Part shown: positions 6,597-22,478 of the stretch, one piece after another
How the letters are laid out: each line of letters opens with the position of its first letter
Numbering within the stretch: position 1 is the first letter of the stretch
From: an uncultured Clostridia bacterium
Lineage (GTDB): Bacteria > Bacillota > Clostridia > TANB77 > CAG-508
Direction: 5' to 3'
Length of the DNA stretch: 64,000 bases
Assembly (NCBI GenBank): GCA_944386755.1
Contig: CALXCF010000006.1
Coordinates: 21,520-85,519, forward strand
The notes under the pieces: generated by a model
Databases searched by the model: none
What the model was told of the DNA's origin: nothing
Seen by the model: the letters and a program-made list of their open reading frames with translations, nothing else
Translations under genes and position numbers: made by a program

Positions 6597-6818
6597 ATGG
6601 TAAGAAAATTAGATGAATTAGGAAGAATAGTAATTCCTGCTGAAATTAGAAAAGCATATGACATTAAAGAAGGAGATGGCTTAGAGATAATAGAGAAAGA
6701 TAACGAAATAGTTATCAAAAAATGTTTGGACACATATTGCCCAAAATGTTTAAAAAAGTGTTCTCATACTGATAATTATTGCAGTAAATGTGGACTCAAT
6801 TTTGAAAATATGGAGTAG
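6597..6818 (+). CDS. AbrB/SpoVT-type regulator with zinc ribbon
   Basis: The 73-residue protein has an N-terminal swapped-hairpin AbrB domain (RKLDELGRIVIPAEIRKAY, residues about 3-45) fused to a C-terminal zinc ribbon (CPKC...CSKC, residues about 50-68). AbrB domains bind DNA as dimers and act as transition-state type regulators. The fused ribbon is an uncommon addition. RBS AAGGAAGG. It probably adjusts phage or host transcription early after induction. Confidence 0.82.
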   Translation: MVRKLDELGRIVIPAEIRKAYDIKEGDGLEIIEKDNEIVIKKCLDTYCPKCLKKCSHTDNYCSKCGLNFENME

Positions 6819-6824
6819 TAAAAG

Positions 6825-7271: not shown

Positions 7272-7278
7272 ACAACTA

Positions 7279-7302
7279 AGGCTAGACACAATAATCTAGC
7301 CT
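7279..7302 (+). terminator. hairpin between nuclease and replication genes
   Basis: AGGCTAGA (7279-7286) and TCTAGCCT (7295-7302) form an 8-bp stem followed by GTTATTTT. The T-run is weak, so termination would be partial. Confidence 0.45.
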
Positions 7303-7331
7303 GTTATTTTAAAGAAAGGAGAAGTAGGAAA

Positions 7332-8153: not shown

Positions 8154-9366
8154 CGAAGAACTAGAAAAAGCAATGTTATACTTCATAATTTTTGAAAACG
8201 GAGAAGTTAATTTAACAGAAAATGATTTTGTAAATATAACAAACAAAAACATAATAAAAGCTATAAACAAATTAAAAATAGAGAAAAAAGAAATAAGCAT
8301 TATAAATATAGCAAATATTCTAGAAAAAGAGAAAGATATTATAAGTTATCTATCAAATTTGGGGACATATACAATAGGAAGTACAGCAGAAGGGACATAC
8401 AAAGAAATAAAAGAATTAACTAAAAAAAGAGAAACATTTCTAGTTGCAAAAGAAGTAGAAAAAGAAATAAGAGAAGCAGAAAATACAGATTTATACATAG
8501 AAAAAGTAATATCTAAGTTGCAAAAAATAGAAATGCAAACACAAAAAAATGAGAACTTTGTAAATCTAATAGCAAGAACAACAGACCTAATCGAAAAAAA
8601 CATGGCAAGAAAAAACGATTTGTCTTATTACACAGGATTTTTTGATTTAGATAGTTTAACAGATGGACTACACAAAGGAGAGTTAACAATAATTGGAGCA
8701 AGACCAGGAGTTGGAAAAACAACATTTGTACTACAGATTGCAGAAAGAATAGCAAGTTATAACAAAAGTGTAGCATTTGTTAGTTTAGAAATGTCAGAAG
8801 AACAGATAATACAAAAAATTCTATCAAGAAAAGCAAGAGTAAACTCTAGAAAAATTAGAAATGGAGAACTAACAGGAGAAGAACTAGATAAAATTTATAT
8901 TAAATGTGGAGAGATTAGTGATTTACCTTTGTTGCTATATACAAAATTAAATTCTATACAACAAATAGAAATAGAGGTAAGAAAATTAAAGAACAAAGGA
9001 AAACTAGATTTGCTAATCATAGACTACCTACAATTAGTTAAAAATTTAGGGAATTTTAAAAGTAGAGAACAAGAAGTAGCAGATATTTCAAGAACATTAA
9101 AATTGTTAAGCCTAGAATTAGAAATACCAATAATTGCACTTTGCCAGTTAAATAGAAATGCAACAAAAAATGAACCAACTTTAGCAGACATCAGAGAAAG
9201 TGGATCAATAGAGCAAGATGCTGATAATGTAATCTTTTTATATCAAGAAGATGTAGAAAACAATATAGTAACAGTAGATTTACAAAAACAAAGAGCAGGA
9301 AATACAGGTAAAAGTAGACTAAAGTTTAACAAAATAAACAGTGAATTTATAAATTTAGAGAGGTAA
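8146..9366 (+). CDS. dnaB: replicative DNA helicase, DnaB family
   Basis: The 406-residue protein has a short DnaB N-terminal domain, a linker, and a RecA-like C-terminal domain. Visible motifs: Walker A GARPGVGKT near residue 190, SLEMSEEQ, Walker B LLIIDYLQL, and the sensor-like LCQLNR. It forms the ring helicase of the phage replisome. It starts inside the initiator gene (ATGTATAA overlap). No phage primase gene is seen nearby, so host DnaG is probably used. Confidence 0.94.
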   Translation: MYNEELEKAMLYFIIFENGEVNLTENDFVNITNKNIIKAINKLKIEKKEISIINIANILEKEKDIISYLSNLGTYTIGSTAEGTYKEIKELTKKRETFLVAKEVEKEIREAENTDLYIEKVISKLQKIEMQTQKNENFVNLIARTTDLIEKNMARKNDLSYYTGFFDLDSLTDGLHKGELTIIGARPGVGKTTFVLQIAERIASYNKSVAFVSLEMSEEQIIQKILSRKARVNSRKIRNGELTGEELDKIYIKCGEISDLPLLLYTKLNSIQQIEIEVRKLKNKGKLDLLIIDYLQLVKNLGNFKSREQEVADISRTLKLLSLELEIPIIALCQLNRNATKNEPTLADIRESGSIEQDADNVIFLYQEDVENNIVTVDLQKQRAGNTGKSRLKFNKINSEFINLER

Positions 9367-9371
9367 AGCAT

Positions 9372-9491
9372 ATGAAAAAAGTAATAAATGAAGAAGATAT
9401 AAGAAAAGCAAATGACATAGAAAGATGCCAGATATTAATTAAAATCATAAAAGGACAAGCAGTATATACACAAGATATAAAAACACATTAG
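9372..9491 (+). CDS. small phage protein (39 aa)
   Basis: A 39-codon frame directly after the helicase with GAGAGG 8 nt upstream. Charged N-terminus, short Ile/Leu-rich middle. No family recognised. Confidence 0.5.
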   Translation: MKKVINEEDIRKANDIERCQILIKIIKGQAVYTQDIKTH

Positions 9492-9505
9492 TGAGGTGTT
9501 AAGAA

Positions 9506-9778
9506 ATGATAGAAACAAAGCAATTAAGTTTTGAAGATATAAAATCATCAAGAAAAACAAAATATATTCAAATATTAGAAATTTTAGGAAATAAGCAAAT
9601 GACGGCAAGAGAAATAGAAATAGAAATGAACAGAAAAGATTATTCTTCTTATTTTGACATGAACCATGTAAGACCAAGACTAACAGAGCTAGTTAAAGAT
9701 TTTAAATTAGTTGAAGAGTGCGGAACGAAAGAAGATAGTTTAACTAAAAAGAAAGTAACAATTTACAAGAAGAAATGA
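9506..9778 (+). CDS. winged-helix DNA-binding protein (90 aa)
   Basis: The pattern YIQILEILGNKQMTAREIEIEM...VRPRLTELVKDFKLVEECG is a typical winged helix with a basic wing. RBS GAGGTG. Probably a phage transcription or replication factor; the target is unknown. Confidence 0.68.
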   Translation: MIETKQLSFEDIKSSRKTKYIQILEILGNKQMTAREIEIEMNRKDYSSYFDMNHVRPRLTELVKDFKLVEECGTKEDSLTKKKVTIYKKK

Positions 9779-9787
9779 GTGATAAAA

Positions 9788-10183
9788 ATGGAATTAACAG
9801 CAGAAGAAATATTAAAGATAATGAAAGAGTTTTTTGAAGGAATAGATATAGAACATAGTAATTTATTACAAGAGTTAACGAACAAAGAAGCAGAACAACA
9901 AGATTTATTGCATGAATTAGAATTAAACAATTTAAATGCAGTAGAAATAACAAAAGTAGCAATAGATTTAAAGAAAGTAAGAAAAGAGAGAAGAATAATA
10001 AAGAACGACATAGAAAGAGTAAAAACAATAAAGAGTTTTACAGACAAATACAACAATAAATTTATAGTGAACGAAATAAAAACACTAATTAAAGAGCTAT
10101 ATAAACTACAAAAAAGACAAAACAATAGACAATACGAACCAAGGATTTTAAAAGATAGAAAAATAGGAGAGAAAAATGGGTAA
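9788..10183 (+). CDS. helical coiled-coil phage protein (131 aa)
   Basis: Acidic N-terminus followed by long Leu/Glu/Lys helices. A GTG at 9779 is an alternative in-frame start; the ATG at 9788 was chosen because GAGTG lies 6-7 nt upstream. It overlaps the next gene by 8 nt. No family recognised. Confidence 0.6.
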   Translation: MELTAEEILKIMKEFFEGIDIEHSNLLQELTNKEAEQQDLLHELELNNLNAVEITKVAIDLKKVRKERRIIKNDIERVKTIKSFTDKYNNKFIVNEIKTLIKELYKLQKRQNNRQYEPRILKDRKIGEKNG

Positions 10184-10397
10184 GTGTAATAATTGTGTAA
10201 AATTTCTAACTTGCAGCAGAAAAGAATGTAATCAAGTAACATATTTACAAGCAAATCAAATAGACAGAATAGAAGCAAGAAAAGGAATAGAACTATCAAT
10301 AGAAACTGATTTTAAAAAGTTTACAGAAGCGGTATGTATGGCAGGAACAACATTAAAACAACTGTTAGATAGTTTTAAAATAAAAGAAACAGAATAA
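10176..10397 (+). CDS. small cysteine-rich phage protein (73 aa)
   Basis: N-terminal CNNC...CSRKEC suggests zinc binding; the rest is helical. ATG overlaps the preceding gene, with GGAG in its 3' end. Unknown function. Confidence 0.65.
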   Translation: MGKCNNCVKFLTCSRKECNQVTYLQANQIDRIEARKGIELSIETDFKKFTEAVCMAGTTLKQLLDSFKIKETE

Positions 10398-10408
10398 AGG
10401 AGTTAGAT

Positions 10409-10912
10409 ATGACAAAAGAAGAAATGTTTAACAAGAACATAAAAATAGCTTACAAACTAGCTAATAGATATTTAACAAATTATGCTAATGAATATGAAGA
10501 TATAAAACAACTTGCATTAATGGGTTTGTGGAAAGCAGTATCAACATTTGACAATACACATGCTTTTAGCACATATGCTTATACAGTAATATCTAACGAA
10601 ATAAATTGTTATTTACGAACAGTAAAGAAACATTATAACACAATATCTTTAAAACAAGAAATAAAAGAAGATATAACACTAGAAGATGTTTTAGCAGATA
10701 AAAATAATTACATAGAAAAACTAGAAAATAGTTTAGATATAGAAAATTACATTTCTCAAATAAGAAATAGCAAGTTAAACGAAAAAGAAAAAATGGTTTT
10801 CGAACTAAGTTTAAAAGGATATAGACAAGACAAAATAGCGAAAATAGTAGGTTATTCTCAACCACATATCAGCAGAATAATTAAAAAATTAAGAACCAAG
10901 ATTAAATTATAA
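10409..10912 (+). CDS. phage-encoded sigma-70-like factor
   Basis: The 167-residue protein has sigma region 2 (residues about 25-75: EYEDIKQLALMGLWKAV and AFSTYAYTVISNEI) and a region 4 helix-turn-helix at the C-terminus (about 115-165: LNEKEKMVFELSLKGYRQ, YSQPHISRIIKKL). Region 3 is short. It probably redirects host RNA polymerase to phage promoters in mid or late infection. Near the end of the early region, upstream of the ArpU-like gene. Confidence 0.85.
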   Translation: MTKEEMFNKNIKIAYKLANRYLTNYANEYEDIKQLALMGLWKAVSTFDNTHAFSTYAYTVISNEINCYLRTVKKHYNTISLKQEIKEDITLEDVLADKNNYIEKLENSLDIENYISQIRNSKLNEKEKMVFELSLKGYRQDKIAKIVGYSQPHISRIIKKLRTKIKL

Positions 10913-10959
10913 AGAATAATAAAAGCTTCATTAAGAAGCGGAAAGGAGAGAAAAAGAAA

Positions 10960-11169
10960 ATGCAAAAATACGAAAGAACAATAACACTAACACTAATAAT
11001 ATTATTTTTACTAATAATGTTTTTGATAGGAAATATAAGTTACAGAAACAATTTGATAAAAGAGCAACAACAAAAAATAACAGATTTACAAATAGAATTA
11101 GATAGCGAAAAAGAGAAAAGCTATCAATTAGAACTAGAAAAGAAGAGGAGTGTTTTGAATGAGCAATAA
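10960..11169 (+). CDS. single-pass membrane protein with coiled coil (69 aa)
   Basis: One hydrophobic helix (residues about 8-27) followed by a Gln/Glu/Lys heptad region (about 32-65). RBS GGAGAG. Might be an accessory lysis (spanin-like or Rz-like) or a membrane anchor protein, but its place is early, not with the lysis genes. Confidence 0.6.
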   Translation: MQKYERTITLTLIILFLLIMFLIGNISYRNNLIKEQQQKITDLQIELDSEKEKSYQLELEKKRSVLNEQ

Positions 11170-11323
11170 GGAATTAATATTAAATATAGCTTGTTGCATA
11201 GCAAATTTAATCATAATAATACTATGTTTCGCAATTGCAATTTTTAAAGATTGGTGGCTATGCTTATTACTTCCTCTGATTCTACATTTTAGCATAAACA
11301 GAAAGGATGATGAAGATGAGTGA
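11159..11323 (+). CDS. small two-helix membrane protein (54 aa)
   Basis: A 54-codon frame overlapping the previous gene by 11 nt, with GAGGAG just before its ATG. Two hydrophobic stretches (about residues 8-28 and 31-45) separated by KDWW. Holin-like in size and topology but away from the lysis cassette. Function unknown. Confidence 0.6.
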   Translation: MSNKELILNIACCIANLIIIILCFAIAIFKDWWLCLLLPLILHFSINRKDDEDE

Positions 11324-11714
11324 CATAGAAGAAGATATAAAGATAATAGAAAACTATCTCAATAGAAGTGTATACAAAGAAAAAGACAACAATTTCTTTA
11401 AGGGAAGTGGCTGGGAGGTTGTAGATTTAGAGATACCACAAGCTATGGCAAATATCTTAGCAGAACGAAAACAAGATAAAGCAAAAATAAAAGAATTAGA
11501 AGAAGCACTATTAAAAGTTAAAAATAAAAATGTAGAGCTATTTATACATTACAAGAATAGCGTACCAGCTCAAAAAGTAAAAGATGTATTAACAGAAATA
11601 CAAAAAGAATATAACAAAGTACAAGAACAATTTGATTGCATTTGGAACAAAAAAGTAAAGATGATTACGATAGATATAAACTTCAAGAGCTTTCTGCAAT
11701 GCAACAGCAACTAG
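11316..11714 (+). CDS. coiled-coil phage protein, apparently frameshifted
   Basis: Starts at ATG 11316 after AAAGG (two earlier ATGs are too close to it). The frame gives 132 residues, but after an A6 tract (11649-11654) the protein character is lost. One frame away the sequence continues as KDDYDRYKLQELSAMQ...LEELLEDK and stops at 11758, 1 nt before the next ATG. The intact gene was therefore probably 11316-11758 and has lost one A, or is expressed by frameshifting. Function unknown. Confidence 0.7.
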   Translation: MSDIEEDIKIIENYLNRSVYKEKDNNFFKGSGWEVVDLEIPQAMANILAERKQDKAKIKELEEALLKVKNKNVELFIHYKNSVPAQKVKDVLTEIQKEYNKVQEQFDCIWNKKVKMITIDINFKSFLQCNSN

Positions 11715-11759
11715 GATTTTTTATAGGAAAATTAGAAGAATTATTAGAGGATAAATAAT

Positions 11760-12410
11760 ATGAAAGATACAAACAAAGATAAAATAATCTTAGATTTATG
11801 TGGAGGAACAGGTAGTTGGTCAAAATATTATAAAGATAATGGATATGATGTAAGAATAATAACTTTACCAGATTATGATGTACTTACTTATGAACCACCT
11901 AAAAACGTATATGGAATATTAGCAGCACCACCATGCACGATGTTTAGTATAGCAAGAAATGATAAAACAGCAAAAAAACCAAGAGACTTGAAAGGTGGTA
12001 TGGAAATAGTAAATGCTTGTTTAAGAATAATACATACATGCTTATATGAGAATTATAGAGTTGGACAAGGATTACACTTTTGGGCATTAGAAAATCCATA
12101 TAGTGGATATTTAAAAAGATTTTTGGGAAAACCTGCGTTAATATTTGACCCATATGAATACGGAGACCCATATACTAAGAAAACAGCAATATGGGGAGAG
12201 TTTAAAGAACCAAAGAAGCATATAGTAAAACCAAGAGAATATCAGCACAATTGTGGTGCCAGGGATTTTGTGAGCTGTGTAGAACATTTTGCAGATTTAA
12301 AACAAATACCAGAAGGATATTTAGAAAAAACAGGTTTAAGCAAAAGGACAGTACTAAGAAGTATGACACCACTCGGATTTGCAGAGGCTTTTTATGAAGC
12401 AAATAAATAA
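11760..12410 (+). CDS. small C5-cytosine DNA methyltransferase-like protein
   Basis: The 216-residue protein has a SAM-binding start (ILDLCGGTGSWS, residues about 9-20), a Pro-Cys motif APPCTMFS (about 56-63, Cys as putative nucleophile) and an ENP motif (WALENP, about 112). These match motifs I, IV and VI of m5C methyltransferases, but the protein is short and lacks an obvious large target-recognition domain. No restriction enzyme is next to it. It may protect phage DNA from host restriction; activity on another base cannot be excluded. Confidence 0.75.
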   Translation: MKDTNKDKIILDLCGGTGSWSKYYKDNGYDVRIITLPDYDVLTYEPPKNVYGILAAPPCTMFSIARNDKTAKKPRDLKGGMEIVNACLRIIHTCLYENYRVGQGLHFWALENPYSGYLKRFLGKPALIFDPYEYGDPYTKKTAIWGEFKEPKKHIVKPREYQHNCGARDFVSCVEHFADLKQIPEGYLEKTGLSKRTVLRSMTPLGFAEAFYEANK

Positions 12411-12430
12411 GTTAATAAGGAGGACAAGCA

Positions 12431-12874
12431 ATGGTAGCTGAATACAGTGTAACTTTAGAAAACAAAACTAAGAGTGAATTAATACTATTTATAAAACAAC
12501 TACAGGATATGCTAAAAGAAAAAGATAAAAAGATAGAATACTATAAAAAACAAAAAGATTATGATATGCAATTTAGACATGAACTTCTTGAACAAATACG
12601 TTGCTTGAATTTAGATAAGGACCATAACTCTGCAGAGATTGAGCAGAAAAACACAGAGCTTGCAGAGAAGTCTGCAGAGATAGAAAAGAAAGACAAGGAA
12701 ATAGATTTAATATTAGATAAATTAAACGAAAATTATACTGATGTATTTAAGAATAATGAAGTAAAGGGAATTATAGAAATATACGAAAAAATAAAAAACA
12801 CAAGCAATTTAAGTGGTATTAAATTAAGAAAAGAATGTATAAAACAATATTTTGAAAGGAAAGTGAAAAAATGA
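12431..12874 (+). CDS. coiled-coil phage protein (147 aa)
   Basis: Strong AAGGAGGA site. Long heptad regions (about residues 15-100), with repeated AEIEKKD-like segments. Overlaps the next gene by 4 nt (ATGA). Role unknown. Confidence 0.65.
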   Translation: MVAEYSVTLENKTKSELILFIKQLQDMLKEKDKKIEYYKKQKDYDMQFRHELLEQIRCLNLDKDHNSAEIEQKNTELAEKSAEIEKKDKEIDLILDKLNENYTDVFKNNEVKGIIEIYEKIKNTSNLSGIKLRKECIKQYFERKVKK

Positions 12875-13263
12875 TTGAAGTAGGAGAATATGTAAGAACT
12901 AAAAATGGAATTATTGATAGGATAAAAACAATTAATAGATATGGAACAGTTACAAAATATGATGATAAAGAGGATAAGATTTCTATAGCAATAAATTATT
13001 ATATTAATAGTGGCTTAGAAGTAAATAAAGATGACATAGTAAAACACAGCAAAAACATAATTGATTTAATAGAATTAGGAGACTATGTAAATGGAAATGA
13101 AGTACTTGATAAGTATTTATTTAATGGGGAAAAGCCTGTACTAGAAACAACAGGAGATGAAACAAATGCTAAATGTGTGTGTGAAGGTGATATTAGAACA
13201 ATACTAACAAAAGAACTGTATAAAGCAAACTGTTATACAGTAGAAGGGAAGGAAAAATGTTAA
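12871..13263 (+). CDS. hypothetical phage protein with SH3-like start (130 aa)
   Basis: Begins IEVGEYVRTKNGIIDRI, a beta-rich pattern seen in several small phage proteins, repeated later as LIELGDYVNGNEVL, so the protein may hold two related small barrels. Two Cys near residue 100 (KCVCEG). No function assigned. Confidence 0.62.
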   Translation: MIEVGEYVRTKNGIIDRIKTINRYGTVTKYDDKEDKISIAINYYINSGLEVNKDDIVKHSKNIIDLIELGDYVNGNEVLDKYLFNGEKPVLETTGDETNAKCVCEGDIRTILTKELYKANCYTVEGKEKC

Positions 13264-13529
13264 AAATTAAAGATAACGTAGATTTAAAAGAATTAGAAAA
13301 GTTTGGATTTGAAATTAATTTTGTAGCAGGAGTATATAAAAAAGAACTTAAAAGTAGCTATATGGATAATTGTTATATAGAAGTACAAAAAAGTAGAAGA
13401 ATTATAATTGAAACTAGAATTAAAGATGAATATATACAAAATTTAAAAAGCACAAATACAGATAAACTAGATGTAATATACGACCTAATCCAAGCAGGAT
13501 TAGTCGAGAAAGTAGAGAAAGAAAGATGA
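13257..13529 (+). CDS. hypothetical phage protein (90 aa)
   Basis: Starts 7 nt inside the previous gene after GGGAAGG. Begins LKIKDNVDLKELEKFGF, a start shared with many uncharacterised Firmicutes phage proteins; ends in a helix LDVIYDLIQAGLV. Confidence 0.62.
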   Translation: MLKIKDNVDLKELEKFGFEINFVAGVYKKELKSSYMDNCYIEVQKSRRIIIETRIKDEYIQNLKSTNTDKLDVIYDLIQAGLVEKVEKER

Positions 13530-13831
13530 GAGATATAAACAACAATAAATCAGTAAACAATATTATAAATTATACAGTGGTGTTTTATGAAGAAGAACCA
13601 GAAGCAAACACATTTGGAAGTAATGATGTTATGTATGAAATATTTTACAGTACTAAAACAGGAATAATGCAAGTAGAAGAAGTGGGAGCTTTTGGAGATA
13701 GAACACTTATAGGAAGATACCAGGATAGAAGAGGTAGAGGAATAACATTAGATGAAATGCTAGAAAACATAAAAGAAATATCAGAAATGACTTACAAAGA
13801 ATTTAAAGAAAAAATCTTAAAGAAGGAGTAA
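13526..13831 (+). CDS. hypothetical phage protein (101 aa)
   Basis: ATGA overlap with the upstream gene indicates coupled translation. Beta-rich N-terminus, helical C-terminus. No family recognised. Confidence 0.6.
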   Translation: MRDINNNKSVNNIINYTVVFYEEEPEANTFGSNDVMYEIFYSTKTGIMQVEEVGAFGDRTLIGRYQDRRGRGITLDEMLENIKEISEMTYKEFKEKILKKE

Positions 13832-13834
13832 AAG

Positions 13835-14161
13835 ATGTATATAAAAGAAACAAAGAAAGTAACTAAATATTTAGAAAGAGTAGTAAAGACAAAATGTGAT
13901 GTATGTCAAAAAGAAATACCTAATTTTGATGAAACAAAAGACTTGAGGAAAAGTAGATATTTTGAAGTAACAACAGGACATCATTTGTGGGAAAATGATA
14001 GCATTGATAGTATAAGAGACTATAACATATGTCCAGATTGCATACAAAAATTTATAAAGAATTACATAAAAAATGTAGAAAATACATATTACATAAATAT
14101 TGAAACGACAGTAGCAAGTGAAGAGAGATATTCTGATGAAGAATACGAGGAAGGAGAATAA
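13835..14161 (+). CDS. zinc-binding hypothetical phage protein (108 aa)
   Basis: Two Cys pairs, CDVC near residue 22 and CPDC near 68, flank a segment with HHLWENDS. A four-Cys zinc site is likely. Acidic tail. RBS AAGGAG. Role unknown. Confidence 0.65.
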   Translation: MYIKETKKVTKYLERVVKTKCDVCQKEIPNFDETKDLRKSRYFEVTTGHHLWENDSIDSIRDYNICPDCIQKFIKNYIKNVENTYYINIETTVASEERYSDEEYEEGE

Positions 14162-14164
14162 AGA

Positions 14165-14611
14165 ATGAGTTATGCAAGAAATAAAAGAGCAAAGGAACGA
14201 AGAAGGAATAGAATAGATATTATTGATATAGAAAAATTGCAGAAACAGAGAAATGAAAACTTACAAAAAGAAAGATTAGAAAACGAAGAAAAAATAAAGA
14301 CTTTAACGAAAGTAGAAGAAGAAATGGGAATTACCTTGGTACACGGTGCAATGACTTATGAATGTGAAGAATGTGGCAAGACTTGGAAAATGTGGCTTGA
14401 AGTAGGAGTTGAAGGAAAAAATAAAATAATGCCATGTCCATTTATTATAAGATGTAAATGTGGAGGAATGGCTAAACATATAAATTGGCAAAATGATATA
14501 GATTTACCAGAGCCAAGACCACTTGGAGAAAATATGAGTTATTTCAAGCTAGATAGAAAAGGATTAAAGAAAAAAGATAGTAATGCTTGTGGAATACCAA
14601 TATTAAAGTAA
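14165..14611 (+). CDS. zinc-ribbon phage protein (148 aa)
   Basis: Basic, helical N-terminus (RNKRAKERRRNR) and a C-terminal zinc ribbon (YECEECGKTW ... CKCGG). The mix suggests nucleic acid or nucleoprotein binding. RBS GAAGGAG. No function assigned. Confidence 0.65.
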   Translation: MSYARNKRAKERRRNRIDIIDIEKLQKQRNENLQKERLENEEKIKTLTKVEEEMGITLVHGAMTYECEECGKTWKMWLEVGVEGKNKIMPCPFIIRCKCGGMAKHINWQNDIDLPEPRPLGENMSYFKLDRKGLKKKDSNACGIPILK

Positions 14612-14624
14612 GGAGAACTAGCTA

Positions 14625-14942
14625 ATGGAAAAAGAAGAAATAGAACATATAGAAGAAATTAAAAAGATGCTTAATTTTACAACAAACGATAAAGAAACAG
14701 GATTACAAATGAATGGAGAAGTTTGTCATTTGTTATTAGAATACATAAATTATTTAGAGCAAAAAGAATCTATATTAGATAAAGTAACAGAGTTTGCAAC
14801 TAAAGTGGCAACAGAAAACGCAGAAAAATATAATTCCGAAAATCAAAAAGAAGTTGATTTTTCAGAGTGGAATTTAGCTTTAGAAATATTAAATATTATA
14901 GAAGGAGAAAAGAAAATAAACAAAACACCTATAGAAACATAG
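14625..14942 (+). CDS. hypothetical phage protein (105 aa)
   Basis: Helical acidic protein. RBS AAGGAG. The last codons overlap the hairpin that serves as terminator for the tRNA gene on the other strand. Confidence 0.62.
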   Translation: MEKEEIEHIEEIKKMLNFTTNDKETGLQMNGEVCHLLLEYINYLEQKESILDKVTEFATKVATENAEKYNSENQKEVDFSEWNLALEILNIIEGEKKINKTPIET

Positions 14943-14945
14943 GTG
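14926..14945 (-). terminator. terminator of the antisense tRNA gene
   Basis: On the minus strand CACCTAT and ATAGGTG form a 7-bp stem with a 6-nt loop, followed by TTTTGTTTATTTTCTTTT. It begins 5 nt after the tRNA 3' end and overlaps the 3' end of the rightward gene. Confidence 0.8.
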
Positions 14946-14950
14946 CTCTG

Positions 14951-15035
14951 CGGAGAGGATGGGATTCGAACCCATGATACTATATAGTATGCTTATTTAT
15001 AAGACAAGTGCAATAAGCCACTCTGCCACCTCTCC
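14951..15035 (-). tRNA. class II tRNA, serine-like body, anticodon UAU
   Basis: The 85-nt sequence folds as a full cloverleaf. Acceptor GGAGAGG/CCTCTCC; 3-bp D stem GCA/TGC; anticodon stem CTTGT/ATAAG with one G-U; loop CTTATAA giving anticodon TAT; long variable arm with 5-bp stem ATACT/AGTAT; T stem ATGGG/CCCAT with loop TTCGAAT; discriminator G73. CCA is not encoded (CAG follows). Long arm, 3-bp D stem and G73 are serine traits, whereas UAU would read AUA (Ile). It has its own promoter (15045-15073) and terminator, on the strand opposite the phage operon. Confidence 0.85.
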
Positions 15036-15044
15036 ATACAATTG

Positions 15045-15073
15045 ATTTTAACATAAAAGAAGAATTAAATCAA
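15045..15073 (-). promoter_or_regulatory. promoter of the antisense tRNA
   Basis: On the minus strand TTGATT (15073-15068), 17-bp spacer, TAAAAT (15050-15045). The tRNA 5' end is 9 nt further on, so transcription would start almost at the tRNA itself. Confidence 0.7.
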
Positions 15074-15091
15074 GAAAGTAAGTGATAAACA

Positions 15092-15262
15092 ATGAAACTA
15101 AACGAAAGAATAGAACAATCAATAAGCTTAGGAGCTAAAGAAATAAAAATAAGAAAAGAAGTATATAACAAACTAAGTGAAGAGACAAGAAAATTATTAA
15201 AATTAAATAAAGTAAAAATAACATTTGATAACAACGTAAAAGAATTTCAAAGTATATTTTAA
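15092..15262 (+). CDS. small phage protein (56 aa)
   Basis: Lys/Ile-rich 56-residue frame with a weak GTAAGTG site. Short beta segment at the end (VKITFDNNV). Similar small basic proteins sit before late regulators in other phages, but no family is recognised. Confidence 0.55.
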   Translation: MKLNERIEQSISLGAKEIKIRKEVYNKLSEETRKLLKLNKVKITFDNNVKEFQSIF

Positions 15263-15277
15263 ATTTGGGAGGTACAA

Positions 15278-15754
15278 ATGAGCAAAGAAGAGTTAATACA
15301 ATTATTAAAAGATTATAAAGAAAACAAAGCTAAATTAAATATAAAGCTAAAAGACTTAAAGAATTGTAGAATAAAGTTAAAACATTTAGAGCTAGAAACA
15401 AACTCAACAACGTCATATGGAATCAATCAAGATATACATAGTAAAAACAAAATAAGCAATAAAGTATTAGATAAAATAGAACAAAATGATACTAAAAGAA
15501 TTGAACTACAAAAAGAAATTGAAGATTTAGAAAAAACAGTAAGAAAACTAAGAGAAAAAGTAGAAGCAGTTGATGATAGATTAACAGGACTAAAATACAA
15601 AGAAAGAGAAATTTTAACGGCTTATTATGTAGAAGGTAGAACAGCAGAAGAGATTGGAAATAAATTGTACTTTCAATTATTTAGTCAAACAAGGTCTCCT
15701 AGAAGAATACAGATGATAATAGAAGAAGCCACTAAAAAAATGTTAAAATTATAA
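15278..15754 (+). CDS. ArpU/RinA-like late gene transcription activator
   Basis: The 158-residue protein has a helical coiled N-terminal two-thirds and a sigma region 4-like helix-turn-helix at the C-terminus (KYKEREILTAYYVEG, RTAEEIGNKLY, RSPRRIQMIIEEAT). Proteins of this type sit at the end of the early region of Firmicutes phages and activate the packaging-structure operon. Three phased TTCRTA repeats follow the gene immediately and are the likely target. RBS GGGAGG. Confidence 0.82.
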   Translation: MSKEELIQLLKDYKENKAKLNIKLKDLKNCRIKLKHLELETNSTTSYGINQDIHSKNKISNKVLDKIEQNDTKRIELQKEIEDLEKTVRKLREKVEAVDDRLTGLKYKEREILTAYYVEGRTAEEIGNKLYFQLFSQTRSPRRIQMIIEEATKKMLKL

Positions 15755-15758
15755 AAAT

Positions 15759-15813
15759 TTCATAAAAACTTCGTAAATATTTCGTATTAATATACAAATA
15801 TATATAGTATAAT
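15759..15813 (+). promoter_or_regulatory. candidate late promoter with three phased activator repeats
   Basis: TTCATA (15759), TTCGTA (15770) and TTCGTA (15781) are spaced exactly 11 bp, so all face one side of the helix. TATAAT follows at 15808-15813, with no good -35, as expected for an activator-dependent promoter. It precedes tRNA-Gln and the packaging genes. Confidence 0.72.
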
Positions 15814-15826
15814 AACAATAGTAAAA

Positions 15827-15934
15827 TTGTCGAAAGACAAAATATAAGAATATTAAATAAAGCATCCCTTTTATTTTTATTTAATTATTTAAAGAAGAGC
15901 AGACGTTATTATTAATGTTTGTTCTTTTTATTAG
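15827..15934 (+). ncRNA. possible leader or small RNA downstream of the late promoter
   Basis: After the -10 lie a small hairpin with a GAAA tetraloop (TTGTC/GACAA, 15827-15840) and, at 15895-15926, a 13-bp stem (three G-U pairs) followed by TTTATT. The second looks like an intrinsic terminator. The 195-bp stretch has no gene; it could give a short RNA of roughly 110 nt or be an attenuated leader of the late operon. Confidence 0.4.
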
Positions 15935-15949
15935 TGAGTTCTAAAACAT

Positions 15950-16023
15950 TTGGGAATAGTGAAATGGTATCACAGTAGACTTTGATTCTACGATTTTTAG
16001 TTCGAATCTAAATTCCCAAGCCA
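15950..16023 (+). tRNA. tRNA-Gln(UUG), phage-encoded
   Basis: A 74-nt class I cloverleaf: acceptor TTGGGAA/TTCCCAA, D stem GTGA/TCAC, anticodon stem GTAGA/TCTAC with loop CTTTGAT (anticodon TTG), T stem TTTAG/CTAAA with loop TTCGAAT, discriminator G and encoded CCA. It reads CAA, the main Gln codon of this AT-rich phage, and lies in the late transcript. Confidence 0.93.
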
Positions 16024-16045
16024 AATAAACATAAGAGGATACGAT

Positions 16046-16303
16046 ATGGAAAGATGTTTAGAAACGAATATAGTTTGTAATAACTGCAATAAATTATGCA
16101 AGGATTGTAAACTAGATGAATGCAAGGAAACTATAAAAATGATAGATAGATTAGAAGAAAAAGAATATGATTTTAAAGTAGAGAAGATAAAAGCTCAACT
16201 ACCAAAAAGTTGTAAAAATTGTAGTCTATTACAAATATTAGATTTAGACAAACAGAAAGTATATTGTTCATACATGATAAAAGACAAATGTTGCTTAAAA
16301 TAG
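16046..16303 (+). CDS. cysteine-rich phage protein (85 aa)
   Basis: Twelve Cys, arranged in pairs such as CNNC, CKDC, CKNC and CC, suggest two or more zinc sites. RBS AGAGGA. Located between tRNA-Gln and the glycosyltransferase. No family recognised. Confidence 0.65.
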   Translation: MERCLETNIVCNNCNKLCKDCKLDECKETIKMIDRLEEKEYDFKVEKIKAQLPKSCKNCSLLQILDLDKQKVYCSYMIKDKCCLK

Positions 16304-16324
16304 AAAAATGAAAGAAGGAAGAAA

Positions 16325-17551
16325 ATGCAAAAAATAATACTATATCATAACAACTTATTGAAGTTTGGCGGAGTAGATACATTTGTTTATAACTTTATAA
16401 AGAAGATGTCAAAGCATTATGACATTCTTTTTTTATATACAATAGCAGACACAGAAAATCTTAAAAGAATTAAACAATTTACAAAAACAGAAAAATATAA
16501 TAAAGATAAAAAATATATATGTGATGTTTGTATTTGTGCATCTGCTTGGGGACAATATCCAGAAACAGTTATAGCAAAAAGCGGAAGATACATACAGATG
16601 GTACATGCAGACTATATAAGAGCAAAAGAAGTAAATTTTACATATCACAAATGGTTCAAAACAACAGAACATATCGGTGTGAGCGAACATGTATGTAAAA
16701 TATTCAAAGAGTTGTATCCAAATGAAAAAATAACAAGAATTTATAATATTTTAGATGAAACACAAGAAACAAAACCAATCTTAAAATTAATAAGTGCAAC
16801 AAGAGTAAGTAAAGAAAAAGGTTACGACAGAATGTTAAAATTGGCACTAAAATTGAAGAAAGCAAATATAAAATTTAGATGGACCATTTTTACAGATTTA
16901 GATTTATACAATCAAAAGCCATTTGATTTAGAAGAAGTAGTCTACATGAAACCAAGCTATGATTTTTGGGATTATATTAAAGAAGCAGATTATGGAGTTC
17001 AATTATCAGATACAGAAGGTTATAGTTATTTTATAAATGAATGTTTGCAGTATGGAACACCAGTGATAACAACAAATTTTCCAAGTGTTTACGAAAGCGT
17101 GGAAGATAGAGTAAATGGTTATATATTGGACATGAATCTAAAGAATTTAGATATAGAAAAAATAGTTAACAATATTCCAAAAGAATTTGAATATAAAGAA
17201 AAATGCACTGAAAAAGATTGGATTAAGTTGTTAAATAAAAAGAAAGAGAGGAATAAAAATATGTTTAGAATAACAGCAAAACAAGATTATACAGATAAAA
17301 GACCAGAGCTTATAGAAGAGTACAACGAAGGAAAAGAAGTTAAATACAACGGTGAAGGCAATGCAATTATAAAGCAAAATGATATTTATTTAATTAATGA
17401 TTCTGCAAGAGCAAAAGAAATAGAAGAATCTGGATTAGCAGAAGTTAAAGAGATGAAAGAAGAAGTAATAGAAACTGCAAAGAAAGAAGTAAAAGCAGAA
17501 ACAACAGTTAAGAAAACGACAAGAAGAACTAGAAAAAAGAAAGAAGAATAA
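16325..17551 (+). CDS. GT-B glycosyltransferase (GT4-like) with basic C-terminal extension
   Basis: The 408-residue protein has a GT-B fold pattern: N-terminal FGGVDTF (residues 14-20) and a C-terminal nucleotide-sugar domain with ISATRVSKEKGYDRML (about 158) and DTEGYSYFINECLQYG (about 230-245). From Met313 a different domain follows (MFRITAKQDYTDKRPELIEE) ending in a Lys/Arg-rich tail. A good RBS (AGAGAGG, 9 nt before codon 313) suggests the tail is also made separately or came from gene fusion. The substrate could be a virion protein, DNA or a host glycan. Confidence 0.8.
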   Translation: MQKIILYHNNLLKFGGVDTFVYNFIKKMSKHYDILFLYTIADTENLKRIKQFTKTEKYNKDKKYICDVCICASAWGQYPETVIAKSGRYIQMVHADYIRAKEVNFTYHKWFKTTEHIGVSEHVCKIFKELYPNEKITRIYNILDETQETKPILKLISATRVSKEKGYDRMLKLALKLKKANIKFRWTIFTDLDLYNQKPFDLEEVVYMKPSYDFWDYIKEADYGVQLSDTEGYSYFINECLQYGTPVITTNFPSVYESVEDRVNGYILDMNLKNLDIEKIVNNIPKEFEYKEKCTEKDWIKLLNKKKERNKNMFRITAKQDYTDKRPELIEEYNEGKEVKYNGEGNAIIKQNDIYLINDSARAKEIEESGLAEVKEMKEEVIETAKKEVKAETTVKKTTRRTRKKKEE

Positions 17552-17553
17552 AT

Positions 17554-17889
17554 ATGTTATTAAAGATGTGTGCTAGATGTCAAAAAGTAATACAAGCTCC
17601 TAATAGATACTGTCCTAAATGTCAAACAATAGTAAACAAAGAAGCGGAAATTAATAAACAAAAAAGTATGAGTAGATATAACAAGACTAGAGATAAAAAA
17701 TATAAAGCCTTCTACAATAGCAAAGAATGGAAACTATTAAGAGATACATATAAAGAAAAGCATTACTTATGTGAAAAGTGTCAAGAAGAAGCAAATAAAG
17801 ACAATAAATATAGTGTTCAACTAACAGAAGAAGTACATCACAAAGAGCCAATACAAACACCAACAGGTTGGCTCAGAAGACTAGAATGA
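17554..17889 (+). CDS. HNH endonuclease cut short by an in-frame TGA
   Basis: The 111-residue product has two N-terminal Cys pairs (CARC, CPKC), KEWKLLRDTY and CEKC, and the first His pair of the HNH motif (EVHHKEP). Right after a TGA the same frame continues SNLIALCHKHHDMIHNRF to a TAA at 17959-17961, which supplies the Asn and last His. The gene is thus interrupted by one stop codon. In cos phages HNH next to terminase is needed for packaging, so loss would be serious unless the stop is read through. Confidence 0.82.
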   Translation: MLLKMCARCQKVIQAPNRYCPKCQTIVNKEAEINKQKSMSRYNKTRDKKYKAFYNSKEWKLLRDTYKEKHYLCEKCQEEANKDNKYSVQLTEEVHHKEPIQTPTGWLRRLE

Positions 17890-18083
17890 AGCAATCTAAT
17901 AGCATTATGCCATAAGCATCATGATATGATACATAATAGATTTAAAAGAAGAAACATGTAATGGAATGTAAATATAGAGATACAATAGAAAGACAAGATA
18001 TAAATAATATAATAACACTAAATAAGAAGAATATATAATTTAAAATCAATTTTATAGAAAAAAGTAATAAAAAAGATATTTAG

Positions 18084-18175
18084 AAGCGATAGGGGGTACA
18101 TAAAAAAGTATTAAAGGTATTAGTAGAGAACGGTGCGTCCCTCCTCTTTGTACAAAAAAGTCCCTCAAATCGCTT
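18084..18175. other. candidate cos (packaging) site
   Basis: The 318-bp gap between HNH and the small terminase holds AAGCGAT (18084-18090) and its inverted copy ATCGCTT (18169-18175). Between them are two GTACA..AAAAAAGT copies (18096, 18150), two direct GTCCCTC copies (18137, 18160) and the local GC-rich blocks AGGGGGTAC and CGGTGCGTCC. Such repeats next to terS are typical of cos in HNH-type phages. The cut position cannot be read from sequence. Confidence 0.55.
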
Positions 18176-18207
18176 TTGAACTGATAAAATTAAGAAGGTG
18201 AGGAAAT

Positions 18208-18714
18208 ATGCCAAGAGGAAATCAAAAACAGCCGATAGACCTAATTATAGCGAAAGGAAAAAAACATTTAACGAAAGCCGAAATAGAAGAAAGAAAAAGT
18301 ACAGAAATTCATACAAATTATATCAATGTAACTGCACCAGAATATCTGAATGAAAAGCAAAAAGATGAGTTTTATAGAATTGCAAAAATCTTATTAGATA
18401 TAGGAATAATAACTGAGTTAGACGAAGATTGCCTAGCTCATTATTTAATTTCAAACTCAAATTATATAGAGTATACTAAAAAATTAAATGAACTAAATAC
18501 AAAATTATCAAAAACAAGAAAAATAGACAAGAAAAAAGAATATATGTCCCAAATAGATTTATATTTAATCTATCAAGACAGAGCTTTAAAACAATGTCGA
18601 GCTTGTGCAAATGATTTAGGATTGTCAATATCTTCAAGAGCTAAGTTAGTGATGCCGAAACCAAAAGAAGAAGTAAAAGAAAATAAATTTTCTAAATTTA
18701 AGGTGGTGGGCTAA
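18208..18714 (+). CDS. terS: terminase small subunit, P27 family
   Basis: The 168-residue protein begins MPRGNQKQPIDLIIAKGKKHL and has the P27-type helical core (PEYLNEKQKDEFYRIAKIL, LDEDCLAHYL). It recognises the packaging site and recruits the large subunit. RBS AAGGTGAGG. It ends in the same frame as the large subunit, separated by a single TAA. Confidence 0.9.
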   Translation: MPRGNQKQPIDLIIAKGKKHLTKAEIEERKSTEIHTNYINVTAPEYLNEKQKDEFYRIAKILLDIGIITELDEDCLAHYLISNSNYIEYTKKLNELNTKLSKTRKIDKKKEYMSQIDLYLIYQDRALKQCRACANDLGLSISSRAKLVMPKPKEEVKENKFSKFKVVG

Positions 18715-20430
18715 ATAATAGATAGAGTAACGGAATATGCAAAAAAGACTATCGAAGAAAATAAAATGGGAGAATTGCATATTCTAGCATGCAAAAGGCA
18801 TCTTGAAGATTTAAAAAGACAAGGAACTAAAGAATTTCCATATATTTGGTCACCAGAAAATTCTGAAAGAATAATACAATATGCGGAAACACTAACAATT
18901 GGCGAAGGATTTGAAAAGAAACAAGTAAAATTAGTTGGTGGACAAATTTTTGATTTTGGATGTCCATTTGGCTGGTTAAAGTTAAATGGCAAAAGAAGAT
19001 TTAGACGTTCATATAAATCTATGGCTAGACAAAATGGAAAATCATTTGAAAATGGTATAAAAGGAACTTATATTGCAGGATTTAGTGGATACAATTACGG
19101 AAAATTGTTTACAGTAGCTACTAAAAAAAGACAAGCTCGAATAGCATGGGAAGAAATGAAAAAATTTATTGAAGCCGATAAAGATTTGCAAGAGCTATTT
19201 GAAATAAAAGATTATAAATCACTAATAATTTCAAACGATACTAAATGTACAATTGAAGCACTATCAAGAGAAGGTGGACTAGATGAAGGATTTAGAGCAA
19301 TATTTGCTTCAATAGATGAATATCATCAACACCCAGATGCTAAAACATATAAAGCTATTTATAACGGAACAAGAGCACTAGACGAGACATTAATAAGTAT
19401 TATTACAACAAGAGGAGATAAATTAAACAGTGCATGTTTTGAAATGGACCAATATTGTATAAATATTTTAAAAGGAATAGTAACTGCAAATGATTTCTTT
19501 GTTGATATATATGCATTAGACGAAAAAGATAATGTTTTTAATCCTGAAAATTTAATAAAAGCAAACCCATATCTTGCATCAACAAAACAAGGCTTAGAAA
19601 ATCTAAAAACAGACATGCAGACTGCAAGAGATATGGGAGGGAGCGAACTAAGGGACTTTATGACAAAGTCTCTTAATTTATGGGTACAAAATACAGAGGA
19701 TAGATTTACAAGTCCACAAAAATGGAAGAAATGTGAATCTGATTTAGAATTAGAAGATTTAGAAGGCAAAAAGTGTTATGCAGGATTAGACCTATCTAGC
19801 GGAGGAGACTTAACAACAGTAGCAATCGAAATACCTTTAGAAGATGAAGAATTTTTTATTTTTACACATTCTTTCATGCCGAGAGCAAGGTTAAACGAAC
19901 ACATAACGACAGATATTGCACCATACGATTTGTGGGAAAGAGAAGGGCTTATAACAGTAACAGGCGGACAAGCCACATACAAAAATGATTATAAATTTAT
20001 AGTTAAGTTTTTAAGAGATATGATAGAAAAATACGATTTAGATTTACAAGCAATAGGATATGACCCTCATAATGCAGATGGTTTTTTAGCAGATTTAGAA
20101 GAATTTGGAGTACCACTTTTAGAAATAAAGCAATCAGCTAGATTTTTACATGATGGAACAGAGGATATGCAACTAAATATCGAATCAAGAAAAATAAAAT
20201 ACAACAAAAAAGAAGAATTATTAAGCTATAGTGTTTCTAATGCAAAAATAGTGAGAAACAGTTTTGGAGAAAAGAAAATAGATAAAGAAAAAGATTCAAA
20301 AAATAAAAGAATAGACCCAGTAGATGCAGTAATAGATGCACATATTACACAAATGAAATTCAAAGAAAAGGAAGAAGTAGATTACAACAAAGAGATGGAA
20401 GACTATTTAGAAAAAATGGGCTGGAATTAG
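18715..20430 (+). CDS. terL: terminase large subunit (Terminase_1 type)
   Basis: ATPase-nuclease that packages DNA into the prohead. Visible: Walker A-like SMARQNGKS, Walker B IFASIDEYHQH, and nuclease-domain acids in GLDLSSGGD and DPVDAVIDAH. The first ATG is 18766, but homologous N-terminal sequence (DRVTEYAKK) extends upstream to 18715, where an AUA sits 8 nt after AGGTGG and directly after the terS stop. No ATG, GTG or TTG exists there. The 18715 start therefore implies AUA initiation; 18766 is the conservative alternative (554 residues). Confidence 0.88.
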   Translation: MIDRVTEYAKKTIEENKMGELHILACKRHLEDLKRQGTKEFPYIWSPENSERIIQYAETLTIGEGFEKKQVKLVGGQIFDFGCPFGWLKLNGKRRFRRSYKSMARQNGKSFENGIKGTYIAGFSGYNYGKLFTVATKKRQARIAWEEMKKFIEADKDLQELFEIKDYKSLIISNDTKCTIEALSREGGLDEGFRAIFASIDEYHQHPDAKTYKAIYNGTRALDETLISIITTRGDKLNSACFEMDQYCINILKGIVTANDFFVDIYALDEKDNVFNPENLIKANPYLASTKQGLENLKTDMQTARDMGGSELRDFMTKSLNLWVQNTEDRFTSPQKWKKCESDLELEDLEGKKCYAGLDLSSGGDLTTVAIEIPLEDEEFFIFTHSFMPRARLNEHITTDIAPYDLWEREGLITVTGGQATYKNDYKFIVKFLRDMIEKYDLDLQAIGYDPHNADGFLADLEEFGVPLLEIKQSARFLHDGTEDMQLNIESRKIKYNKKEELLSYSVSNAKIVRNSFGEKKIDKEKDSKNKRIDPVDAVIDAHITQMKFKEKEEVDYNKEMEDYLEKMGWN

Positions 20431-20439
20431 GAGGAAAAA

Positions 20440-21747
20440 GTGAAACTTAAAGAAAGAATTAAAACAGCATATAGAGTGCTAACCAATAAAGCAAGTAAAG
20501 ATATGGCAATGCAACAATTAATAGATTTTTTAGGACTAAATGACACTAAGGAAAAGGCGTTATCTGAAGCTACTTATTTTGCTTGTTTAAAAGTTTTGAG
20601 TGAGTCTGTCGGAAAATTACCATTAAAATTGCTACAACACAATGAAGACGGTGGAGTTGTTACTGCAAGAGGACATCCTTTATATTTTGCATTACATGAC
20701 AGACCTAATCCTTACATGACATCAACAACATTTTGGTCGACAATGGAGCAAAATAGGAATCATCATGGGGACGCTTATGCATGGATAAAAGGAGCAGGTA
20801 AAAAAACGTCGCTATGGATTTTACCATCTGAAAGTGTAGAAATTTGGTACGATGACCAGAAAATATTGAGTGATATACCAGATATTTACTATATCTATTC
20901 TTATGGTGGAAAATTATATAAATTTTCATCTGAACAAATAATACATTTAAAAACATCAAGTAGTTTTGATGGAATAAAAGGAATACCTGTTAGAGAACAA
21001 CTTAAATCTACAATTAGTGGGAATATAAAATCACAAAAAATGTTAAATCAAATGTATAAAAGTGGATTTACAGCTAAAGCCGTTGTTCAATACACAGCAG
21101 ATTTATCAGATGAAAATCTAAAAAAATTCAAAGATAAGATAGAAGATTTTGCTGGTAGTGATTTAGACGATAAAGAAGTAAAAAACATAATTCCAATTCC
21201 AGTTGGAACGACATTAACTCCTTTAAACGTCAAATTAGCAGATAGCCAATTTATAGATGTAAAAAAATATAGTGCTTTACAAATAGCATCTGCATTTGGA
21301 ATAAAACCAAACCAAATTGGAGACTATGAGAAATCTAGTTACGCAAGTGCAGAGGCACAGCAATTAAGTTTTTATGTTGATACACTATTATACATATTAA
21401 AACAGTATGAGGAAGAACTAAATTATAAACTTTTATCAAGAGAAGAAATTGATAATGGATACTACTTTAAATTTAATGTTGGAGTGTTATTAAGAGCAGA
21501 TTTAAAAACACAAATAGAAACATTAAGTCAAGCAGTATCTAATTTTATATACACACCAAATGAAGCGAGAGCTTTATTGGATAAGCCAGCAGTACCAGGA
21601 GGAAATAAACTTCTAGGAAATGGTGCTAGTATTCCTGTAGAACTCGCAGGAGCACAATATACAAATCTTAAAGGAAAGGAGGAAGAAAAACAATGGATGG
21701 AACAGGCAATAGAGAAAATACTGACAAAATTGTTGAAGAAGGTGTAA
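20440..21747 (+). CDS. portal protein, HK97 family
   Basis: The 435-residue protein has the phage portal signature (ATYFACLKVLSESVGKLPLKL, HPLYFALHDRPNPYMT, FWSTMEQNRNHHGDAYAWI). It forms the dodecameric ring through which DNA enters. GTG start after AGGAGG. The 3' end overlaps the protease gene by 55 bp. Confidence 0.94.
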   Translation: MKLKERIKTAYRVLTNKASKDMAMQQLIDFLGLNDTKEKALSEATYFACLKVLSESVGKLPLKLLQHNEDGGVVTARGHPLYFALHDRPNPYMTSTTFWSTMEQNRNHHGDAYAWIKGAGKKTSLWILPSESVEIWYDDQKILSDIPDIYYIYSYGGKLYKFSSEQIIHLKTSSSFDGIKGIPVREQLKSTISGNIKSQKMLNQMYKSGFTAKAVVQYTADLSDENLKKFKDKIEDFAGSDLDDKEVKNIIPIPVGTTLTPLNVKLADSQFIDVKKYSALQIASAFGIKPNQIGDYEKSSYASAEAQQLSFYVDTLLYILKQYEEELNYKLLSREEIDNGYYFKFNVGVLLRADLKTQIETLSQAVSNFIYTPNEARALLDKPAVPGGNKLLGNGASIPVELAGAQYTNLKGKEEEKQWMEQAIEKILTKLLKKV

Positions 21748-22475: not shown

Positions 22476-22478
22476 ATT

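What the first reader, a model, noticed from the sequence alone, without database searches (positions are those of the whole stretch)
14945..15073. Antisense, self-contained gene for a serine-type tRNA with an isoleucine (UAU) anticodon
Seen: minus-strand cloverleaf with long variable arm, 3-bp D stem, G73 and anticodon loop CTTATAA, with its own TTGATT-17-TAAAAT promoter and an intrinsic terminator, inside and against the phage early operon. Established: SerRS recognises the long variable arm and not the anticodon; AUA in bacteria is normally read by a lysidine-modified tRNA-Ile(CAU); nematode nev-tRNAs and bacterial allo-tRNAs show that class II bodies can carry foreign anticodons. Inference: if charged with Ser (or Leu) this tRNA would misread AUA, one of the commonest codons here, which would be harmful or regulatory; otherwise it may be a decoy for anticodon nucleases or an uncharged regulatory RNA. 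Its independent signals suggest expression in the lysogen.
Basis: partly seen in the sequence, partly recalled or inferred. Interest (0 to 1): 0.87.

Follow-up and report, generated by a model that had tools for sequence, protein, structure and literature searches.

The report
Prophage serine-type tRNA with isoleucine anticodon
A virus dormant in a bacterial chromosome carries a tiny independent gene for a serine-shaped transfer RNA whose reading head fits an isoleucine codon, but the RNA lacks the tail needed to carry an amino acid and this bacterium seems to have no enzyme to add it, so it looks more like a mimic or a relic than a translator.

Summary
Window 15035-14950 (minus strand) is a complete 7/5 class II tRNA with a serine-type body (G1-C72, G2-C71, G73, variable stem) and a UAU anticodon. 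Comparison with sister prophages shows an insert of about 156 bp (14916-15071) holding only a promoter-like site, the tRNA and a terminator, antisense in the phage operon.

Two results change the interpretation. The gene does not template CCA (G73-CAG), while 33 of 34 assessable tRNA genes of this genome and 17 of 17 in sister-prophage stretches do. And no CCA-adding enzyme was found in the 97.6%-complete genome; 34 of 129 good genomes of the genus have one. As encoded, the RNA should not be chargeable here. That fits the codon data: AUA is conserved as Ile and makes 5-6% of codons, so an efficient seryl missense tRNA would be ruinous.

Best reading: a self-contained prophage pseudo-tRNA, inert in translation in this host, acting, if at all, as a tRNA mimic. 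A decaying tRNA-Ser relic is a close rival. Ser-type tRNAs with UAU are known (allo-tRNA UAU), so this is a new variant of a known kind.

The parts
14950..15035 (-). Ser-type class II tRNA with UAU anticodon (G73 at 14951); CCA not templated
   Evidence: ARAGORN, RF00005 57.6 bits, arm decomposition, 3' end
14920..14951 (-). intrinsic-terminator-like hairpin with U-rich tail directly after the tRNA
   Evidence: fold of tRNA plus terminator z -5.10
15045..15073 (-). promoter-like site TTGATT-17-TAAAAT with TG before the second hexamer
   Evidence: hexamer density in the region not above shuffles
14916..15071 (.). insert of about 156 bp holding terminator, tRNA and promoter-like site; ends uncertain by a few bases
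   Evidence: left flank shared with 5 sister-prophage stretches, right flank with 2 of 3 looked at
14625..14942 (+). phage ORF upstream in the operon; its last codons run into the insert
   Evidence: no PHROG or Pfam match
15278..15754 (+). late-regulator-like phage ORF used to find sister prophages
   Evidence: phrog_36 transcriptional regulator, E 4.8e-11; 30 of 210 genus genomes match, own included
15950..16023 (+). second phage tRNA, Gln(UUG), in operon sense, with templated CCA
1732..42496 (.). prophage, bounded by a 40-bp direct repeat (one mismatch) in the 3' part of tRNA-Arg(UCU)

Best explanation
A prophage-borne, self-contained pseudo-tRNA. It belongs with the tRNA-Ser(UGA/CGA) group, keeps the whole tRNA fold and the serine-type features, but carries a UAU anticodon and does not template CCA. 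Shown by sequence: the fold, the insert of about 156 bp with promoter-like site and terminator, its antisense position, the missing CCA, and no detectable CCA-adding enzyme in the host assembly. Inferred: the unit is transcribed from the prophage independently of the phage operon; the RNA stays uncharged and so does not misread AUA; if it has a role, it acts as a tRNA mimic that binds factors recognising the tRNA body (a processing, modifying or cleaving enzyme, or SerRS), that is, as a decoy or regulator outside translation.
For: Intact cloverleaf and Ser-type features. 6-9 stem substitutions against three tRNA-Ser relatives with all 20 pairs kept, P 0.00004 to 0.00039 for random placement. 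Discrete insert with its own signals, antisense. CCA not templated, against 33 of 34 assessable tRNA genes of the genome and 17 of 17 in sister-prophage stretches that do. No PF01743 in the host with 10 of 10 bacterial controls ringing, nothing with a genus-specific profile or PF09249. AUA conserved as Ile and 50-58 per 1000 codons in phage and host, so an active missense tRNA would be costly. Precedent for a pseudo-tRNA with effects outside translation: tRNA-Other of Bacillus cereus (PMC3399842, abstract and passages).
Against: No expression data and no known partner. The promoter hexamers are not above chance in density. The gene was found in no other of 204 genus genomes or 390 family genomes, so conservation of the changed anticodon cannot be shown. 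The host assembly is incomplete, so a CCA-adding enzyme could be missing from it; the genus-profile search had no positive control of its own. No PIN-domain (VapC-type) nuclease, the obvious decoy target, was found in the host. Other hosts of the phage may have the enzyme: 34 of 129 genus genomes do.
Confidence: 0.43

Rival explanations
1. A relic: a former phage tRNA-Ser unit that lost templated CCA in hosts without a CCA-adding enzyme, became useless for translation, and whose anticodon then drifted to UAU. No present function.
For: Seen only in this genome among those searched. CCA missing although 17 of 17 tRNAs in sister stretches template it. Ser-type bodies with UAU are rare in viral contigs next to UGA: one intact Ser-type case among 32 UAU places against 117 class II UGA cases in a capped list of 120.
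Against: All 20 stem pairs, the usual invariant bases, the terminator and the promoter-like site are intact; a decaying gene would be expected to show stem damage as well.
Confidence: 0.34
2. An active missense tRNA: charged with Ser by SerRS and reading AUA, as a weapon, regulator or cost, in this host or in other hosts of the phage that do have a CCA-adding enzyme.
For: Ser-type body; [quoted passage not shown] allo-tRNAs insert Ser at non-Ser codons in E. coli (PMC7609411, passages). 34 of 129 genus genomes have PF01743.
Against: No templated CCA and no enzyme found to add it in this host. AUA is Ile at conserved sites, Ser 0.005, and so frequent that 10% misreading would leave 0.170 of 300-residue proteins free of error.
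Confidence: 0.13
3. An isoleucine tRNA in class II shape that supplements AUA decoding.
For: UAU anticodon with A37 and A38 in the loop. Class I tRNA-Ile(UAU) exists in lactic acid bacteria (cited in PMC9976931), and one UAU tRNA is reported in Latilactobacillus curvatus prophages (PMC10688831, passages). Class II-shaped tRNAs with UGU anticodons are frequent in viral contigs, so a long variable arm does not prove serine identity.
Against: G73 and a Ser-type acceptor stem; no CCA; the host has TilS, so the usual AUA route is expected; the phage does not use AUA more than the host.
Confidence: 0.05
4. A tRNA for tRNA-dependent lysogeny, replacing a host tRNA destroyed by integration.
For: Known for some temperate phages (PMC10865867, abstract).
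Against: This prophage sits at tRNA-Arg(UCU), which is intact behind a 40-bp repeat, and the gene is not an Arg tRNA.
Confidence: 0.01

Closest known systems
Allo-tRNA(UAU) (Mukai et al. 2017, seen only through review PMC7609411)
   Same: Serine-type features with a UAU anticodon; UAU is named there among the predominant anticodons of 8/4 allo-tRNAs, and allo-tRNA(UAU) species could not be used for translation in E. coli.
   Different: Allo-tRNAs have a 12-bp acceptor domain in 8/4 or 9/3 form; this one is 7/5, lies in a prophage and has its own promoter-like site and terminator.
Pseudo-tRNA tRNA-Other of Bacillus cereus (PMC3399842, abstract and passages)
   Same: tRNA-like RNA on acquired DNA, outside translation, poorly charged.
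   Different: tRNA-Other has a Trp anticodon and is part of a longer RNA; the window RNA is a compact class II unit with its own terminator. No homology was tested.
Phage-encoded tRNA-Ser(UGA), such as that of Bacillus phage PJN02
   Same: Near relative by sequence, global identity 0.774.
   Different: Ser anticodon, templated CCA and a place in a tRNA array, against UAU, no CCA and a solitary antisense unit.
Phage moron (recalled concept: small cargo insert with its own promoter and terminator)
   Same: Short insert between phage genes with its own signals.
   Different: The cargo is a single tRNA-like RNA rather than a protein gene.

Membership tests
tRNA (RF00005) | Covariance model match above the gathering score | tested here: met
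   57.6 bits against 29
tRNA-Ser body | Long variable arm, G73, G1-C72 and G2-C71 | tested here: met
   importance of these features from passages of PMC9976931
tRNA-Ser body | Nearer to tRNA-Ser than to tRNA-Leu | tested here: met
   0.772 to host Ser(UGA) and 0.750 to G014 Ser(CGA), against 0.632-0.659 to three host Leu; but host Ser(GCU) scores only 0.589 and a sister-phage Ser(UGA) 0.629
tRNA-Ser body | Charged by SerRS | not testable with these tools
   needs in vitro charging
working translational tRNA in this host | CCA end, templated or added | tested here: not met
   not templated; no CCA-adding enzyme found, with the caveat of an incomplete assembly
allo-tRNA | 8/4 or 9/3 acceptor domain | tested here: not met
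   7/5 geometry; definition from PMC7609411
pseudo-tRNA with a function outside translation | Expressed, uncharged, phenotype on removal | not testable with these tools
   no expression or genetic data
phage moron | Insert with its own promoter and terminator between phage genes | tested here: met
   the promoter is a consensus match only
phage moron | Expressed from the repressed prophage | not testable with these tools
   needs RNA-seq
tRNA-dependent lysogeny | Integration destroys a host tRNA of the same isotype | tested here: not met
   att site is tRNA-Arg(UCU) and is intact

The most novel reading that the evidence does not exclude
A prophage of a bacterial genus in which most genomes lack a detectable CCA-adding enzyme deploys a tRNA unit that cannot be charged: a full serine-type tRNA fold without templated CCA, with an anticodon for one of the commonest codons, transcribed against the phage operon from the silent prophage. 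It would be a dedicated uncharged tRNA mimic (decoy or regulator), safe for translation precisely because it cannot be charged.
Probability: 0.28. Interest if true: 0.78.

Novelty: new variant of a known kind. Interest (0 to 1): 0.52.

Why it matters
Phage tRNAs are usually explained by codon supply or by replacing cleaved host tRNAs. This one fits neither well: it reads a codon that the host uses at least as often as the phage, and as encoded it apparently cannot be charged where it lives. If expressed, it is a natural test case for tRNA mimics outside translation in prophages. The patchy presence of the CCA-adding enzyme in the genus also gives a simple genomic criterion, templated CCA or not, for which mobile tRNAs can work in which host.

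Tried and rejected
Copies elsewhere: no hit in viral contigs for a 43-letter pattern of the gene or a 30-base 5' pattern that leaves out the anticodon; no other match in 204 genus genomes or, with a looser pattern, in 390 family genomes, which overlap the former. ARAGORN found no tRNA in the 29 viral stretches with a related terminase. The tRNA region matches 148 of 194 genus genomes; in the 29 other fetched loci of that search the tRNA found is Ser(UGA). Phage and plasmid relatives that I opened (L197-L200, L237-L242, ten loci) hold no UAU tRNA by ARAGORN. The two viral hits of the first UAU pattern (L051, L052) hold no tRNA.

Rejected: AUA recoded as Ser in the phage; codon supply, since AUA is not commoner in phage than in host; tRNA-dependent lysogeny; VapC decoy in this host, no PIN match.

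Literature: searches listed no paper that I recognised as describing a phage Ser-type UAU tRNA; only titles and abstract starts were seen for most. Review PMC8007984 (passages) states that UAU is missing in most bacteria and that phage tRNAs lack the same genes. Mukai et al. 2017 is not held.

Full report
Setting. The window is part of contig 6 of an unnamed 1.59-Mb, 41-contig assembly, 97.57% complete and 4.69% contaminated, in a genus of which 210 genomes were searched. A prophage spans 1732-42496, bounded by a 40-bp direct repeat with one mismatch that lies in the 3' part of tRNA-Arg(UCU) at 42458-42534. It has an integrase (1916-3124), a repressor with an S24 peptidase domain (3174-4247), a DnaB-type helicase (8146-9366), a late-regulator-like ORF (15278-15754), an HNH nuclease and terminases.

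The tRNA. ARAGORN and Rfam both find it at 14950-15035 minus. Decomposition: acceptor GGAGAGG/CCTCTCC, seven of seven pairs; three-pair D stem; anticodon stem with one G-U; loop CTTATAA; 16-nt variable region with a five-pair stem; T stem five of five; G73. The anticodon is UAU and the geometry 7/5. Global identity is 0.778 to a Ser-type UAU tRNA of Leptobacterium flavescens (L098), 0.774 to tRNA-Ser(UGA) of Bacillus phage PJN02, 0.772 to host tRNA-Ser(UGA) and 0.750 to tRNA-Ser(CGA) of genus member G014, against 0.632-0.659 to three host tRNA-Leu; against the trend, host tRNA-Ser(GCU) scores 0.589 and a sister-phage tRNA-Ser(UGA) 0.629. The last 31 bases equal those of the G014 tRNA-Ser(CGA). 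Against host Ser(UGA), G014 Ser(CGA) and PJN02 Ser(UGA), 9, 8 and 6 stem positions differ while all 20 pairs hold, 4, 4 and 3 of them changed on both sides; random placement of as many substitutions keeps 20 pairs with P 0.00004, 0.00007 and 0.00039. So the body evolved as a folding tRNA. That says nothing about the time since the anticodon changed.

The unit. The late-regulator-like ORF has matches in 30 of 210 genus genomes, the own one included. Of the 32 listed matches in other genomes, longer stretches were taken for 26; the six left out were the weakest or partial ones. In five of these stretches the homologue of ORF 14625-14942 ends in ...GAAGGAGAAAAG and then runs into the start codon of another gene, while in the window it runs into the terminator from about 14913-14916. 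On the other side the shared AAGAAAGTAAGTGATA starts at about 15072 in two of three stretches looked at (L169, L188, not L193). What lies between, about 156 bp, is the terminator, the tRNA and the promoter-like site, whose -35 hexamer reaches two bases past the junction. No stretch shows both flanks directly joined; other small genes lie between them. The promoter-like hexamers are not above chance in density; the terminator is the only one found in 2.5 kb. tRNA plus terminator folds far better than its shuffles (z -5.10). The phage's other tRNA, Gln(UUG), lies in operon sense.

The missing tail. The gene reads G73-CAG. Of the 35 Rfam tRNA matches in the genome, 30 lie in fetched stretches and all 30 template CCA; the 3 other tRNA genes in the window do too; one match is cut by a contig end and was not assessed. 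So 33 of 34 assessable genes template CCA and this one does not. In stretches L169-L194, 17 of 17 tRNAs template it; two of these (Gly, Asn) I take for host genes. I then asked whether the host could add CCA. PF01743 has no match in the genome and rings in 10 of 10 bacterial controls. A profile of two CCA-adding-type enzymes of the same genus (best matches are CCA families, below their curated cut-offs) finds nothing at E up to 10, without a positive control in that call. PF09249, the archaeal type, finds nothing and rings in 4 of 4 archaeal controls. In the genus 34 of 129 genomes of at least 90% completeness have PF01743; four of the listed genomes without it are given as 100% complete. A divergent RNase Z-like protein exists, below the curated cut-offs, so trimming is possible. 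As encoded, this RNA should not reach a CCA end in this host and so should not be charged; this is an inference from gene content.

Codon meaning. 27 phage proteins had homologues in the related stretches (272 alignments at 35-97% identity; those outside that range were dropped). At AUA codons the 2890 aligned residues are Ile 0.591, Val 0.142, Leu 0.108, Ser 0.005; at AUU codons the 1717 are Ile 0.606, Ser 0.005. AUA is Ile. It makes 50.1 per 1000 codons in the prophage, 58.2 in the host part of the window and 56.1 in another 80 kb of host DNA, counted on mechanically chosen ORFs of at least 120 codons. TilS is present, so the usual tRNA-Ile2 route is expected, although no Ile tRNA gene was recognised among the genes seen in this incomplete assembly. 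At 1% misreading 0.844 of 300-residue proteins would be free of AUA errors, at 10% 0.170. An efficient seryl-tRNA(UAU) in the lysogen is hard to reconcile with that.

How unusual. Class II tRNAs with UAU recur: 13 of 57 stretches from genome contigs and, in viral contigs, 4 of 32 places by length, of which one (L235) has an intact Ser-type body and another (L221) a damaged acceptor. Of the 13 plus L221 and L235, 13 of 15 have G73, 5 have mismatches within acceptor pairs 1-3 and one more an internal mismatch, and 13 of 15 do not template CCA. I did not measure how often other tRNAs of those lineages template CCA, so the last count is only suggestive. By review PMC7609411 (passages) UAU is among the predominant anticodons of 8/4 allo-tRNAs, an allo-tRNA(UAU) pseudogene of Edaphobacter overlaps a transposon-related reading frame, and this group could not be used for translation in E. 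coli. The window tRNA is 7/5 and so is no allo-tRNA by structure, but it shares their puzzle.

Judgement. Shown: a complete Ser-type tRNA fold with UAU in a discrete insert, no templated CCA, no detectable CCA-adding enzyme, AUA read as Ile. Inferred: transcription in the lysogen and the uncharged state. Two readings stay close: a functional pseudo-tRNA (mimic or decoy; precedent tRNA-Other of B. cereus, PMC3399842, abstract and passages) and a relic. Intact stems, terminator and promoter-like site favour the first; the singleton state, the lost CCA and the lack of a known partner favour the second.

Noticed in passing
genus of the window, 129 genomes of at least 90% completeness: PF01743 (CCA-adding enzyme / poly(A) polymerase) matches only 34 of 129 genomes: patchy, apparently repeated loss or gain of the CCA-adding enzyme in one genus.
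   Followed up: partly
viral contigs, loci L364-L482 and L330: 96 of 120 places (capped scan) are class II-shaped tRNAs with a UGU (Thr) anticodon and mostly GCC- or GCT-type acceptors: long-armed phage 'tRNA-Thr' seem common.
   Followed up: no
L235 9206-9293 and 9320-9414: A viral contig with a Ser-type UAU tRNA next to a Leu-like body that ARAGORN reads as GGA, with C at position 33.
   Followed up: partly
L074 1365-1549: An Acidobacteria contig with a class II UAU tRNA beside a Ser-like tRNA with a UUA (stop-reading) anticodon.
   Followed up: no
L169-L194: Sister prophages carry varied tRNAs near the late-regulator ORF: Thr, Met(CAU), Trp, Gln, Ser(UGA), Ser(ACU), Pro.
   Followed up: partly
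L063, L064, L078, L098, L221: Class II UAU tRNAs whose damage sits in acceptor pairs 1-3 while the other arms are intact.
   Followed up: no
window 297-1649: Host gene just outside the prophage matching PADLOC candidate PDC-S01, E 1e-113.
   Followed up: no
window 16325-17551: A glycosyltransferase-like gene inside the prophage between the late regulator and the terminase genes.
   Followed up: no
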